Positions 33,012 through 36,735 of a stretch of DNA of 64,000 nt are shown here, piece after piece. The notes under the pieces were generated by a model. The model worked only from the letters and a program-made list of their open reading frames with translations, ran no database searches and was not told the origin of the DNA. The translations under genes and the position numbers were made by a program. Position 1 is the stretch's first letter. Every line of letters begins with the position of its first letter. The DNA comes from Paenibacillus sp. TCA20 (lineage in GTDB: Bacteria; Bacillota; Bacilli; Paenibacillales; Paenibacillaceae), in NCBI RefSeq assembly GCF_000732325.1, contig NZ_BBIW01000002.1, positions 434,007 through 498,006 of the forward strand. Direction: 5' to 3'.

Positions 33012-33059
33012 AAAAAAAAGAGCTGAGTCTAAAGATTAAATCTACTTTAGATCCAGCTC
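33012..33059 (-). terminator. Terminator of the pspA operon
   Basis: Arms 33045-33059 and 33020-33034 pair over 15 positions with two mismatches; the minus-strand side ends in eight T. It separates the DUF4247 gene from moeA. Confidence 0.88.
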
Positions 33060-33095
33060 CGTTCTTATTTGTTTGTCTTCCCTGTTTACCTTTAC

Positions 33096-33851
33096 TTACC
33101 TTCGCCTTGTAATACGTCCTGAACCCATTTTCGTTTTGGGCCGGCTGCTCTTCTTCGGAGATGAGAATATACTTGATCCACTGCTCTTTCCTCGTTCAAT
33201 CTTACCTTTGCTGGAAGAAGAGGACGATGAGGAGCCTCGTTCGAGCACGCTGTTTCCTGAGGTTGACTTGCTTGTATCTCCTGAATCTCCCAGCCCTCTC
33301 CTAATAATGGATCCACTCTTGTTCGTCGTTAGCGGAGGTGCCATCGACTTATCGTTATCCGTAGGCGTCCGATACGTTCCTTGGGATGGTTTATAAGTCT
33401 TCTGGGTCGTATAACCCCGATATTTCCCTGCGCCTTTTAACGAATCAAACATACTGTCGAGAATCGATGCCGTTATATAACCCTGGAGAAAAGAAGAGCT
33501 GTAGTTCTGTCTGACATATTCTTGCGAGTCCACTTCAATGAGCGTATCTTCCGGTGTTTCTGGGTCTTGCTGCAGATGATATAACTCATCAGGATATACA
33601 AGGAACATTCGCTCTGTATCCTGTGGAGATACTTCTTCCGGTGATCTCTCTTCCATCAGCTCACTCGCAACTTCAGGTACGGTCATACCAGCGGCACGAT
33701 ATACATAGGAAGTTGAATTGCCGCTGCCATTCACAGATTCGAGCGGGTAGTTCTCTTTGACCGCAGACGCTGTTCCACATCCACTAAGTACTGAGACGAA
33801 TAAACTGAGGACAAGTACAATTTTGATCATGTAAAAAAAACGCTTGTTCAT
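33096..33851 (-). CDS. DUF4247 lipoprotein, last gene of the pspA operon
   Basis: A 251-residue lipoprotein. The signal peptide ends in the lipobox VLSGC (Cys near residue 25). A conserved domain of about 100 residues (PEVASELM, ERMFLVYPDELYHLQQDPETP, VRQNYSSSFLQGY) matches what I recall of DUF4247. The C-terminal 80 residues are low-complexity Ser/Lys/Arg and end in a basic tail, which could bind phospholipid or teichoic acid. It starts 12 bases after the DUF4178 gene. Function unknown; position suggests an outer-leaflet component of a membrane-stress system. Confidence 0.8.
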   Translation of the reverse strand: MNKRFFYMIKIVLVLSLFVSVLSGCGTASAVKENYPLESVNGSGNSTSYVYRAAGMTVPEVASELMEERSPEEVSPQDTERMFLVYPDELYHLQQDPETPEDTLIEVDSQEYVRQNYSSSFLQGYITASILDSMFDSLKGAGKYRGYTTQKTYKPSQGTYRTPTDNDKSMAPPLTTNKSGSIIRRGLGDSGDTSKSTSGNSVLERGSSSSSSSSKGKIERGKSSGSSIFSSPKKSSRPKTKMGSGRITRRR

Positions 33852-33863
33852 GGTTAACCTCTC

Positions 33864-34370
33864 CTAGGTTGCCCGAATAACTTTAACATCTGCTGGAATG
33901 ATGTGCTCTCCCTCGTACAGCATAAAACGTCCATTTTGCCATTCAATCCTGAGCAGGTGATTGTCATCAGACTGATACTGCCAGACATGCTGCTCTCCGC
34001 TTTGGGAGAAAGGAGTTCTTCCTGTTGTCAGCACATGCCCTGCGTATTGTTCTTCCATATGATAATCTCGGTCATCAAGCTCTATTGTTGTCGGTACTTC
34101 ATCCGGGCTGTCGAGTCGTCCATCAATCGGCTGGTACAATCCGTAGGTGAGTCGTTCCCTCTCTTCTATATGCAGGTAAGCAAGCTGATTGCCGTCTTGA
34201 AGCGTAAGCACGACTGCATTGCGTCCACGATTCTGCACTCTTCCGACGACCTCGTAAGTGATCAGTGATACCTCGCATATATCTCCAGGAGCCAGCTGCA
34301 GCATACTCTTCTCTTGCGGCTCCGGCTTTGGCTTCGACAGCAGATTCGTTACTCTTTTCCATATACTCAT
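33864..34370 (-). CDS. DUF4178 protein of the pspA operon
   Basis: A soluble cytoplasmic protein of 168 residues. The domain begins with LAPGDICEVSLITYEVVGRV and ends with LRIEWQNGRFMLYEG, as in DUF4178 proteins. The segment YLHIEERERLTYGLYQPID lies between. Function unknown. It lies between DUF350 and DUF4247 genes with short gaps (35 and 12 bases). In other bacteria DUF4178, DUF350 and PspA-like genes recur together, which I state from memory. Confidence 0.82.
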   Translation of the reverse strand: MSIWKRVTNLLSKPKPEPQEKSMLQLAPGDICEVSLITYEVVGRVQNRGRNAVVLTLQDGNQLAYLHIEERERLTYGLYQPIDGRLDSPDEVPTTIELDDRDYHMEEQYAGHVLTTGRTPFSQSGEQHVWQYQSDDNHLLRIEWQNGRFMLYEGEHIIPADVKVIRAT

Positions 34371-34405
34371 TATCTATCAATCCCCTATTTCTTACTCGAT
34401 CCTCA

Positions 34406-34810
34406 TTATAGTGAAGCCGAAATGATCAATGCCCCAACCACATGCAGTGTTCCGGAGAACAACCCATATCCAATCTTGCCCTGCTGCATGCCTCCATCAA
34501 TATCAAAGGCAGCGAACCTGCGAATGATGAAATGGACGACAGCTTCGATCACAAGCAGAATGATAAAAGAAATAACGGAGACGATTAATGCGTCTCCTAA
34601 ATGATACGATACAGATATCGAAGAAGACAAAATGTAGCCCTGTGCGAACAGCTTCATAATAAGTCTTGTTGTTACCGCCATATTGCCTGCCTTCACTTCT
34701 GCAAAATCCTTATACTTCGTAAACAGCGAATCGATATACATCAGTATAAATAGCAATACAGCTCCCGATCCTGTCCATACCAGCATGCGTAAAATATCCA
34801 TAAATTCCAT
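34406..34810 (-). CDS. DUF350 membrane protein of the pspA operon
   Basis: A 134-residue integral membrane protein with about four spans: residues 7-25, 55-75, 77-97 and 115-132. The pattern resembles the DUF350 (YjfL-like) family, which in Escherichia coli sits next to the PspA-like yjfJ. Function unknown, possibly sensing or stabilising the membrane. It starts about 130 bases after pspA, beyond a terminator-like hairpin. Confidence 0.82.
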   Translation of the reverse strand: MEFMDILRMLVWTGSGAVLLFILMYIDSLFTKYKDFAEVKAGNMAVTTRLIMKLFAQGYILSSSISVSYHLGDALIVSVISFIILLVIEAVVHFIIRRFAAFDIDGGMQQGKIGYGLFSGTLHVVGALIISASL

Positions 34811-34850
34811 CTTGGCCTACATCCCCCACTGTTCAAGATAACTCCTCATG

Positions 34851-34886
34851 AAAAACGAAGGAGAAACTTTAAAGGTCTCTCCCTCG
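34851..34886 (-). terminator. Partial terminator between pspA and the DUF350 gene
   Basis: CGAGGGAGAGA pairs with TTTCTCCTTCG (34876-34886 with 34856-34866; two G-T pairs), followed by TTTTT on the minus strand. It would make pspA more abundant than the genes after it. Confidence 0.65.
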
Positions 34887-34938
34887 CTTATATATGTGCT
34901 GATCCTGTTATCCATTCATAGATTGATCAACATTACGC

Positions 34939-35607
34939 TTATTTATTGTCGTATTGCTTCATCAGCGCAGCGAGTTCGTCCTCAACAGCCTGGTCTTTAC
35001 CAAGATTCTCAAACTCTTCGTCGAGAGATTTATCCTTCTTGTTCATTTCATTGCTTGCTTCTGCCAAGGCTTCAGCCTGCAGCATTTTATCTTCCATCCG
35101 TTTAAGACCGGCTGTTGCAGAATCTGAGCTAAAGTCATTCATCGCCTTGTTAATCTCAGTTTGTGCTTTGGCTGCATTATAACGGGCAACCAGAGTTTCA
35201 CGCTTGCTCTTCATTTCAGTGAGCTGCTTGCGCATCTCCTCCAGCTTGCTGCGGAGATTATCAGCCGCCGCCTTGTTTTGGTCGTAACTTGTCTTGTATT
35301 CAGTAAGCTTCGCTTCTGCATTCTTCTTCTCTTCCAATGCGCGACGCGCCAGATCAATATTCTGGGCCTTGGCTGCGGTGTGAGCCTGCTCTTCACGCTT
35401 CTTAACCAACGCTTCTTGCTCTTCGTACAGAGACTTGAATTTCTTCTCTAGGGCAATCTGAGAAGCAACCGCCTTCTCTGCGTCCTCAAGGTCTTCCTGC
35501 ATATCACGAATATATTGATCCGTTAATTTAATCGGGTCCTCTGCTTTATCAATCAGTGCATTAAGGTTAGACATCGTAACATCACGTAATCTTTTAAAAA
35601 ACGACAT
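34939..35607 (-). CDS. pspA: PspA/IM30-family membrane-stress protein
   Basis: PspA-family proteins are peripheral ESCRT-III-like polymers that bind damaged cytoplasmic membrane. At 222 residues it has normal length. The N-terminal amphipathic helix (FFKRLRDVTMSNLNALID) and the conserved EDPIKLTDQYIRDM open the family; the rest is charged coiled coil, with NFDS-like NDFSSDSATAGLKRMEDKM near 158. It is the first gene of an operon with DUF350, DUF4178 and DUF4247 genes. A sigma-W-type promoter lies 74 bases upstream, matching B. subtilis where pspA (ydjF) is a sigma-W target. Confidence 0.94.
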   Translation of the reverse strand: MSFFKRLRDVTMSNLNALIDKAEDPIKLTDQYIRDMQEDLEDAEKAVASQIALEKKFKSLYEEQEALVKKREEQAHTAAKAQNIDLARRALEEKKNAEAKLTEYKTSYDQNKAAADNLRSKLEEMRKQLTEMKSKRETLVARYNAAKAQTEINKAMNDFSSDSATAGLKRMEDKMLQAEALAEASNEMNKKDKSLDEEFENLGKDQAVEDELAALMKQYDNK

Positions 35608-35680
35608 TTCATATTCCTCCCAATGGTTTTCTATTCGCCTTCTTCTTCATAACTCATCAATTTTGCATCTAATCCAATAT

Positions 35681-35706
35681 TACGAATCAATTTAAAATAC
35701 GTTTCA
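35681..35706 (-). promoter_or_regulatory. Sigma-W-type promoter of the pspA operon
   Basis: On the minus strand TGAAAC (35701-35706) is followed after exactly 16 bases by CGTA (35681-35684), the consensus of B. subtilis sigma-W promoters. It starts 7 bases after the namA stop and gives a leader of about 65 bases to pspA. Confidence 0.85.
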
Positions 35707-35712
35707 AAATAA

Positions 35713-36735
35713 TTAAAAACCTCTTAAATAAGGCTTGGGTATAGACTGCTTGCCGCTAATAGCTTGGGATGCGTGCAACGCCCAATACGGATCACGCAGC
35801 ATTCCCCGTCCGACCGCAACGAGATCGGCTTGACCCGATTTAACCACATTTCTCGCATCCTCATAATCCTCCAGCAGGCCAACCGCAATCACCGGAAGCT
35901 CCAGCTCATTCTTGAATATATGGGCCAAATCCACCTGATATCCGGCTCTTGCGGCAGGGCCTCCATCCGAGCCAATCGGGCCTTCTCCTCCAGAGGTGAT
36001 ATGGAAGATATCCACGCCCGCATCCTTATATTTTTGACTAAGTTCAACCGCATACCGAACATCATAGCCATGATCTACATACTCCTTCGCGGAAATACGC
36101 ATGATGATCGGCATTTCACTCGGAATCACTTCTTTAACCGCCGTAATCACCTCAACACCAAAACGGGATAAGTCCTGACCGTATTCGTCCTCACGGAGAT
36201 TTGTCAGAGGAGAATGAAATTGATGAATTAAGTAACCATGTGCTCCGTGTATTTCAACGGTATCAAAGCCAGCCTCTACTGCCCTTCTCGCCGCTTCCTT
36301 ATAATCGATGACCAACTGCTTCACTTCTTCATACTCAAGCGCTCTTGGCACGTCATACCGCTCGCTGAATGGAATGGCAGAAGGTGCAACAGGTGGCTTC
36401 GCATCTTGAGCCTTACGGCCTGCATGCCCCAGCTGAATACCGATCTTACACCCGTAGGAATGAACGGCGTCAACCAGTCTTCGATAGGATGGAATTTGGT
36501 CATCACTCCATAGTCCTGTATCCAGATCGGTAATTCTTCCGTCCGGATGTATACCCGTCATTTCAACAATAATCAATCCCGTACCGCCTACAGCGCGGCT
36601 GACATAATGTACGTAATGCCACTCATTAGGAATCCCATCCTCCTGCGTAACACTGTATTGACACATCGGCGGCATGACAACGCGATTTTTAATTTCCAGG
36701 CCCTTTATCTTAATAGGCTCAAACAATTGACTCAA
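35713..36735 (-). CDS. namA: NADPH dehydrogenase NamA (old yellow enzyme, YqjM type)
   Basis: An FMN-containing ene-reductase that reduces activated C=C bonds and quinones or nitro compounds with NADPH. The 340-residue length is that of YqjM. The active-site Cys25 and Tyr27 in PPMCQYS match the redox-tuning Cys26 and Tyr28 of YqjM, and the His pair lies in EIHGAHGYLIHQF. GRGMLRDP near the end is the phosphate-binding loop for FMN. The gene ends directly at the pspA promoter, but its own promoter is upstream in the divergent region with the deacetylase gene. Confidence 0.94.
   Translation of the reverse strand: MSQLFEPIKIKGLEIKNRVVMPPMCQYSVTQEDGIPNEWHYVHYVSRAVGGTGLIIVEMTGIHPDGRITDLDTGLWSDDQIPSYRRLVDAVHSYGCKIGIQLGHAGRKAQDAKPPVAPSAIPFSERYDVPRALEYEEVKQLVIDYKEAARRAVEAGFDTVEIHGAHGYLIHQFHSPLTNLREDEYGQDLSRFGVEVITAVKEVIPSEMPIIMRISAKEYVDHGYDVRYAVELSQKYKDAGVDIFHITSGGEGPIGSDGGPAARAGYQVDLAHIFKNELELPVIAVGLLEDYEDARNVVKSGQADLVAVGRGMLRDPYWALHASQAISGKQSIPKPYLRGF

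What the first reader, a model, noticed from the sequence alone, without database searches (positions are those of the whole stretch)
33012..35706. PspA-DUF350-DUF4178-DUF4247 operon behind a consensus sigma-W promoter
Seen: four co-oriented genes (PspA-family, four-span DUF350, soluble DUF4178, cationic-tailed DUF4247 lipoprotein), one strong terminator at the end, a weaker one after pspA, and TGAAAC-N16-CGTA just before pspA. Known: B. subtilis pspA (ydjF) is in the sigma-W regulon, and E. coli yjfJ (PspA-like) and yjfL (DUF350) are neighbours. Inference: this is a complete membrane-stress module with a cytosolic polymer, a membrane protein, an adaptor and an outer-face lipoprotein. The lipoprotein's basic C-terminal tail is a candidate lipid or teichoic acid contact. 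The functions of the last three genes are not known to me.
Basis: partly seen in the sequence, partly recalled or inferred. Interest (0 to 1): 0.72.

Follow-up and report, generated by a model that had tools for sequence, protein, structure and literature searches.

The report
Sigma-W membrane-stress operon built on PspA
Four neighbouring genes in a Paenibacillus-type bacterium form a cell-membrane stress operon that looks switched on by the stress regulator sigma-W; many relatives keep the same switch even where the gene order changes or the genes have split apart, which ties three proteins of unknown function to the membrane-repair protein PspA.

Summary
On the minus strand lie pspA (PF04012), DUF350, DUF4178 and a DUF4247 lipoprotein gene, a TGAAAC-N16-CGTA site 73 nt upstream of pspA, a hairpin with a T-run after pspA and a stronger one at the operon end.

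The sigma-W reading is stronger than one motif match. The genome encodes SigW over its curated cut-off. In 250 genomes of the class, 67 carry DUF4178, and the strict site precedes the first module gene in 47 of 67 (permuted motifs: mean 0.06). It stays when the order is DUF4178>PspA>DUF4247>DUF350 (7 of 11). In the Tumebacillus family, where pspA lies elsewhere, the unlinked pspA has its own strict site in 6 of 7 and the DUF4178 operon in 3 of 7. None of 15 other PspA paralogues sampled has one. Five module genomes without SigW have no strict site.

Best reading: a SigW-controlled PspA partner set that replaces ydjGHI of B. subtilis. DUF350 and DUF4178 dock PspA on the membrane and the lipoprotein works outside; these roles are inferred. 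The PspA-DUF350-DUF4178 association is published (2024). The arrangement without a polyamine enzyme and its SigW control through operon reshuffling were not found in print by my searches.

The parts
35681..35706 (-). SigW-type promoter TGAAAC-N16-CGTA
   Evidence: Exact match located; conserved upstream of the first module gene in 47 of 67 class loci and 63 of 80 named loci
34939..35607 (-). pspA, 222 aa, PspA/IM30 family
   Evidence: PF04012 178.3 bits, cut-off 33.9; belongs to a clade of module PspA proteins, support 0.935
34855..34887 (-). hairpin plus T-run between pspA and DUF350, candidate partial terminator
   Evidence: -18.8 kcal/mol by script, -16.7; a hairpin with T-run at this place in 14 of 14 same-genus loci
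34406..34810 (-). DUF350 (YjfL family) membrane protein, 134 aa
   Evidence: PF03994 85.6 bits, cut-off 26
33864..34370 (-). DUF4178 protein, 168 aa, predicted all-beta with N-terminal helix
   Evidence: PF13785 108.6 bits; AlphaFold2 mean pLDDT 90.5
34332..34370 (-). N-terminal amphipathic segment of the DUF4178 protein (residues 1-13)
   Evidence: helix 4-10 in the model, low local confidence (blocks 52 and 64); hydrophobic moment 0.62
33096..33851 (-). DUF4247 lipoprotein, 251 aa, lipobox LSGC with Cys25
   Evidence: PF14042 94.7 bits; Cys25 invariant in a 61-sequence alignment; lipobox
33096..33440 (-). mostly disordered basic C-terminal tail of the DUF4247 protein (residues 138-251), net +19, ending GSGRITRRR
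   Evidence: low pLDDT over most of it; charges and tail comparison
33012..33060 (-). terminator at operon end: hairpin and eight T
   Evidence: -20.4 kcal/mol, z -3.8; sequence

Best explanation
This is a SigW-controlled envelope-stress operon in which one subfamily of PspA is produced together with its own membrane partner set, DUF350, DUF4178 and DUF4247. It takes the place that ydjGHI has next to pspA in B. subtilis. When SigW is released from RsiW, transcription starts before pspA. A hairpin after pspA lets only part of the transcripts continue, so the structural protein PspA is made in excess over the three partners. The likely work is as follows: the DUF350 integral membrane protein and the DUF4178 protein (cytosolic, all-beta, amphipathic N-terminal helix) form the inner-face docking site for PspA; the DUF4247 lipoprotein acts on the outer face, its acidic folded domain near the membrane and its conserved basic tail reaching phospholipid head groups or teichoic acid. 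Shown here: gene row, promoter conservation, SigW presence, hairpin, phyletic dependence on PspA. Inferred: SigW activation of the transcript, partial termination in vivo, docking and the outer-face role.
For: SigW over its curated cut-off in the genome (248.7 against 243.1 bits). The same strict site lies 81 nt before rsiW and 41 nt before an nfeD-like gene of the genome (the NfeD match is below its cut-off). Strict site before the first module gene in 47 of 67 class loci, in at least one locus of 17 of 26 genera and 10 of 15 families; permuted motifs give a mean of 0.059 of 67. In the order DUF4178>PspA>DUF4247>DUF350 the site moves with the operon start (7 of 11). Of 882 other genes in the fetched stretches, 11 have a strict site within 200 nt; 10 are DUF4178 as first gene and one is rsiW. 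Unlinked pspA of the Tumebacillus family: own strict site in 6 of 7, and these PspA proteins fall in the module clade; 0 of 15 other PspA paralogues sampled have a site. SigW not found in 5 of 67 module genomes, none of which has the strict site (P 0.0016). All 67 DUF4178 genomes have a PspA match, against 89 of 183 others (read by eye; Fisher). In B. subtilis YdjI, with the help of YdjG and YdjH, is needed to bring PspA to the membrane (abstract of PMC8581546).
Against: No expression data and no interaction data. Exact motif count in the genome equals the control (14 and 14). 20 of 67 loci lack the strict site; 10 of these have a one-mismatch site at the usual distance and 10 do not, and five of the latter (L123, L125, L172, L178, L182) are in genomes with SigW, two of these below the SigW cut-off. 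The namA gene ends 6 nt before the -35 element and no terminator was listed between, so read-through is possible. Some loci lack DUF350 or DUF4247, so neither is indispensable. G015 has an unlinked PspA of the module type with no site. Genus-mates are not independent: the SigW-less cases are about two lineages, and two of the five genomes are incomplete (79 and 86%). No fold match gives a function for DUF4178 or DUF4247.
Confidence: 0.62

Rival explanations
1. Polyamine-membrane system. The core function of DUF350, DUF4178 and the lipoprotein is to sense or handle polyamines or aminopropylated lipids at the membrane, and PspA is recruited to that; the window operon is a reduced form that lost its polyamine enzyme.
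For: In the order DUF4178>PspA>DUF4247>DUF350 the next conserved gene encodes a long protein with a C-terminal spermine synthase domain (cluster c15; PF01564 in the two members scanned). PMC11237479 describes PspA operons with DUF350, DUF4178 and a 7TM-spermine synthase, and DUF4247 in a variant of operons with polyamine genes (section 19). E. coli yjfIJKLMC carries a peptide-spermidine ligase (annotation).
Against: The long protein is full length only in the 4 genomes of that order among 18 chosen genomes searched; of the other 14, own genome included, 13 have only partial matches in shorter open frames and one has none. Nothing polyamine-related stands in the window operon or in its immediate neighbours namA, moeA and mobB.
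Confidence: 0.17
2. The four genes are only co-regulated. PspA acts alone on damaged membrane, and DUF350, DUF4178 and DUF4247 form a separate SigW-controlled antimicrobial-resistance complex without contact to PspA.
For: The Tumebacillus family keeps DUF4178 and DUF4247 apart from pspA. SigW regulons hold many unrelated functions (recalled).
Against: All 67 DUF4178 genomes have PspA, and the unlinked PspA of the Tumebacillus family is of the module clade with its own SigW site in 6 of 7; the link was kept in two different gene orders.
Confidence: 0.16
3. Another ECF sigma factor, not SigW, uses this promoter.
For: The genome has 20 match rows of varied strength to the SigW profile, i.e. many ECF-type factors; some ECF factors share the TGAAAC element (recalled).
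Against: The strict CGTA element is conserved with 16-17 nt spacing, the same site precedes rsiW, and strict sites are missing in the five genomes without SigW.
Confidence: 0.05

Closest known systems
B. subtilis pspA-ydjGHI operon (PMC8581546 abstract; PMC3498285 passages)
   Same: SigW-controlled pspA as first gene with membrane and membrane-associated partners.
   Different: Partners are a zinc-ribbon, a TPM and an SPFH/band-7 protein (PMC11237479 section 19, PMC8581546 abstract); the window operon has DUF350, DUF4178 and DUF4247 and the genome has no TPM match.
PspA operon group with spermine synthase, DUF350, Ctha_1186 lipoprotein and DUF4178 (PMC11237479, section 19)
   Same: PspA, DUF350, DUF4178 and a lipoprotein in one operon.
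   Different: No spermine synthase, different order, lipoprotein is DUF4247, no CesT/Tir gene seen among the Pfam-identified neighbours. The word sigW does not occur in the paper's text, and none of the passages with sigma that I saw concerns these operons.
E. coli yjfIJKLMC
   Same: PspA-family YjfJ and DUF350 YjfL in a row of small genes of similar logic.
   Different: YjfK is DUF2491 and YjfM is DUF1190; profile comparison with DUF4178 and DUF4247 gave no convincing relation, apart from a short N-terminal resemblance of YjfK to DUF4178 (E 0.0009 for one comparison, probability 22.6).
DUF4247-DUF2617 polyamine operon variant without PspA (PMC11237479, section 19)
   Same: DUF4247; the parent group has DUF350.
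   Different: No PspA, polyamine genes present.

Membership tests
PspA/IM30 family | PF04012 over gathering score | tested here: met
   178.3 bits, cut-off 33.9
PspA/IM30 family | NCBIfam equivalogs for PspA or LiaH | tested here: not met
   107 of 242.95 bits and 117.9 of 380 bits: a family member, not these equivalogs
SigW regulon | SigW encoded in the genome | tested here: met
   TIGR02948 248.7 bits, cut-off 243.1
SigW regulon | SigW-type promoter before the operon, conserved in relatives | tested here: met
   47 of 67 class loci, permuted control 0.059
SigW regulon | transcript depends on SigW | not testable with these tools
   no expression data
pspA-ydjGHI type | TPM-domain gene next to pspA | tested here: not met
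   no PF04536 match at E <= 0.001 in the own genome; the operon genes and three neighbours have other domains
PspA-spermine synthase operon group of PMC11237479 | PspA, DUF350 and DUF4178 in one operon | tested here: met
   (gene row and domains)
PspA-spermine synthase operon group of PMC11237479 | 7TM-spermine synthase fusion in the operon | tested here: not met
   absent from the gene row; own genome has only a partial match, 33% identity over residues 243-472 of 521
PspA-spermine synthase operon group of PMC11237479 | CesT/Tir-like gene beside pspA | tested here: inconclusive
   the gene upstream is NamA-like and the others are DUF350, DUF4178, DUF4247 and MoeA by Pfam; no profile comparison for CesT/Tir was made
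E. coli yjfIJKLMC type | DUF2491 and DUF1190 proteins | tested here: not met
   window proteins hit DUF4178 and DUF4247 only; profile comparisons not convincing
Bacterial lipoprotein (DUF4247 product) | signal peptide and lipobox cysteine | tested here: met
   N-terminal helix 3-24 in the model, LSGC, Cys25 invariant in 61 sequences; no dedicated lipoprotein predictor was run

The most novel reading that the evidence does not exclude
DUF4178, DUF350 and DUF4247 form a SigW-controlled transmembrane docking complex that belongs to one PspA subfamily and replaces YdjGHI in many Bacilli: DUF350-DUF4178 nucleates PspA polymers at the inner leaflet in answer to a state read outside by the lipoprotein's conserved basic tail. 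SigW, not gene order, has held the set together through three arrangements of the genes.
Probability: 0.3. Interest if true: 0.72.

Novelty: new variant of a known kind. Interest (0 to 1): 0.5.

Why it matters
How PspA is placed on the membrane outside Proteobacteria and the B. subtilis model is largely open (my reading of the papers seen). Here three unknown families are tied to one PspA subfamily by shared regulation that survives rearrangement, which gives a short, testable list of candidate docking partners in Paenibacillus, Brevibacillus and relatives, many of which make or meet membrane-active peptides (recalled).
Full report
What is there. The window lies on a 586-kb contig of a 5.63-Mb, 32-contig genome. 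Named close relatives of its proteins are nearly all labelled Paenibacillus, with a few other labels such as Neobacillus mesonae. Minus-strand order is namA (35713-36735), promoter, pspA, DUF350, DUF4178, DUF4247, terminator, moeA, mobB. Gaps are 128 nt after pspA, 35 nt after DUF350 and 12 nt after DUF4178 (from the coordinates). namA, moeA and mobB are ordinary neighbours.

Survey of the families. In 250 genomes drawn evenly from the class, at E <= 0.001, DUF4178 occurs in 67, DUF4247 in 57, DUF350 in 157 (154 over cut-off) and PspA in 156 (141 over cut-off). I fetched the 66 other DUF4178 loci and two DUF4247-only loci of one genome, G085, and annotated them with profile models grown from the window's own proteins. 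Among the 67 DUF4178 loci, window included: PspA>DUF350>DUF4178>DUF4247 39; DUF4178>PspA>DUF4247>DUF350 11; PspA>DUF350>DUF4178 5; PspA>DUF4178>DUF4247 3; PspA>DUF4178 1; DUF4178>DUF350 1; forms without PspA in family f36 7. So 50 of 67 hold all four families together and 59 of 67 hold PspA with DUF4178. In the second order the next conserved gene encodes a protein of about 520 residues with a C-terminal spermine synthase domain; the published group has this as a 7TM fusion. In family f36 a YidC-type gene follows DUF4178 in five of seven loci (cluster c31; one member scanned, PF02096), with two DUF4247 genes in two of these.

Names. A scan of named genomes with a DUF4178 alignment of the first order gave Brevibacillus, Paenibacillus, Aneurinibacillus, Cohnella, Ectobacillus and others: 190 relatives, of which the best 80 were kept. 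72 of these 80 have exactly the window's order. This set overlaps the class sample and is biased to close relatives.

The promoter. One exact motif match proves little: the genome has 14, and so has the reversed control. Position separates them: 6 of 14 are intergenic with a gene 20-120 nt downstream, against 0 of 14 control matches; I set this criterion after seeing the 14 positions. The six include pspA, rsiW (81 nt) and an nfeD-like gene (41 nt), which fits the SigW regulon of B. subtilis, where pspA-ydjG-ydjH-ydjI and yuaF-yuaG(floT)-yuaI are listed (passages of PMC3498285). Across 67 loci the strict motif with 15-17 nt spacing stands within 300 nt of the first module gene in 47; 43 have a 16-nt and 4 a 17-nt spacer. 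Two thousand draws of permuted elements gave a mean of 0.059; the highest, 23, is TGAAAC with ACGT, which is the same site read one base earlier; the next is 4. At least one locus is positive in 17 of 26 genera and 10 of 15 families. In the named set 63 of 80 are strict, 11 have one mismatch, 6 none. Of the 20 strict failures among the 67, 10 have a near match such as AGAAAC, CGAAAC or TGCAAC 47-93 nt upstream and 10 have none there. The two G085 loci have no strict site.

The site follows the operon, not the gene. When DUF4178 is first, the site is before DUF4178, 7 of 11 in the second order and 3 of 7 in f36, and no strict site stands within 350 nt before pspA in any of the 11. Of 882 other genes of at least 100 residues in the fetched stretches (module genes other than pspA included) only 11 have a strict site within 200 nt: ten DUF4178 first genes and rsiW. 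I then fetched PspA genes of the f36 genomes and of others to test whether an unlinked pspA would carry its own site. It does in 6 of 7, at 72-76 nt, and the seventh has TGCAAC at 74. These seven PspA proteins fall with the module PspA proteins (67 of 82 leaves, FastTree support 0.935, midpoint rooted). None of 15 other paralogues has a site; these were a chosen sample, not all, and several are followed by genes that look by eye like the Lia membrane protein, kinase and regulator. One counter-example is G015, whose unlinked PspA is of the module type but has no site.

SigW itself. SigW (E <= 1e-45) was found in 146 of 250 genomes, 131 over the curated cut-off. By eye, 61 of the 67 module genomes are among them. 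Rescoring of the other six showed a SigW gene split between two frames in G214, at most 112 bits in G021, G041 and G072, and nothing at E <= 1e-25 in G052 and G057. None of these last five module loci has the strict site, against 47 of 62; the chance of that by random placement is 0.0016, but four of the five are one family and two genomes are incomplete, so it is about two events.

Dependence on PspA. All 67 DUF4178 genomes have a PspA match, against 89 of 183 others, weak matches included (lists read by eye; Fisher 1.9e-17, not corrected for descent). The reverse does not hold: PspA is common without DUF4178.

Expression ratio. A hairpin with a T-run stands between pspA and DUF350 in 14 of 14 same-genus loci, window included, and in 32 of 44 loci by a loose criterion. 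This fits excess PspA over its partners; in vivo termination is not shown.

The proteins. DUF4178: model at mean pLDDT 90.5, all-beta after an N-terminal helix 4-10 that is amphipathic (moment 0.62) but modelled with low confidence. It starts MSIWKRV, much like PspA's MSFFKRL and YjfK's SGFFQRL; this is a lead, not a test. DUF4247: lipobox, a folded part modelled well to about residue 118, net charge -16 over residues 25-137, and a mostly disordered tail with net +19. Tail ends are alike within each arrangement: in the window's type mostly a Gly-rich turn, a hydrophobic residue and then basic residues (GSGRITRRR here), RGGG[PI]xxGK in all 11 loci of the second order, G-x-G-[KR]-V in f36 (one locus of the window's type, L135, has an unrelated tail). 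No PDB relative and no meaningful fold match were found.

What is known. In the held library DUF4178 occurs in one paper, PMC11237479, and DUF4247 in three (the other two seen as listings). I read section 19 and passages of PMC11237479: it reports PspA with DUF350, DUF4178, a lipoprotein and spermine synthase, and DUF4247 in a variant without PspA; Paenibacillus, Brevibacillus, Tumebacillus and sigW do not occur in its main text. PMC9239133 holds no Paenibacillus, DUF350 or YjfL (passages). SigW control of DUF4178 operons was not found, which cover open-licence papers only.

Verdict. The mechanism, docking of PspA by DUF350 and DUF4178 with an outer-face lipoprotein, is the most likely reading by analogy with YdjG, YdjH and YdjI, and remains to be tested.

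Noticed in passing
L184 5028-9475 (G000:C20): Two further PspA paralogues in tandem in the own genome, followed by genes that look by eye like the Lia membrane protein, kinase and response regulator; no SigW-type site.
   Followed up: partly
L185 5306-5331 (G000:C19): A strict SigW-type site lies between the sigW gene and rsiW, 81 nt before rsiW, so rsiW may have its own SigW promoter.
   Followed up: partly
L006 939-1460 and 1501-1526: NfeD-like gene (below Pfam cut-off) with a strict SigW-type site 41 nt upstream; the downstream stretch may be a flotillin gene, not checked.
   Followed up: partly
L173 4859-6952 and L175 7451-9522: In family f36 (Tumebacillus family) the DUF4178 operon contains a YidC-type gene (PF02096, scanned in L173) between two DUF4247 paralogues.
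   Followed up: partly
L142 8759-9112 and its cluster c11 (17 loci): A gene of the PAC_bac family (PF21758, one member scanned) lies just upstream of pspA in many Paenibacillaceae and is not beside pspA in the window.
   Followed up: no
G214:C1:267941-268490: The SigW gene of a Brevibacillus-family genome is split between two frames although its module keeps the strict promoter; sequencing error or real loss not decided.
   Followed up: no
L015 1576-2055: 159-residue secreted or membrane protein rich in Gly, Ser and Asn with a strict SigW-type site 50 nt upstream.
   Followed up: no
L012 1605-2765: 386-residue multi-span membrane protein with a strict SigW-type site 79 nt upstream.
   Followed up: no
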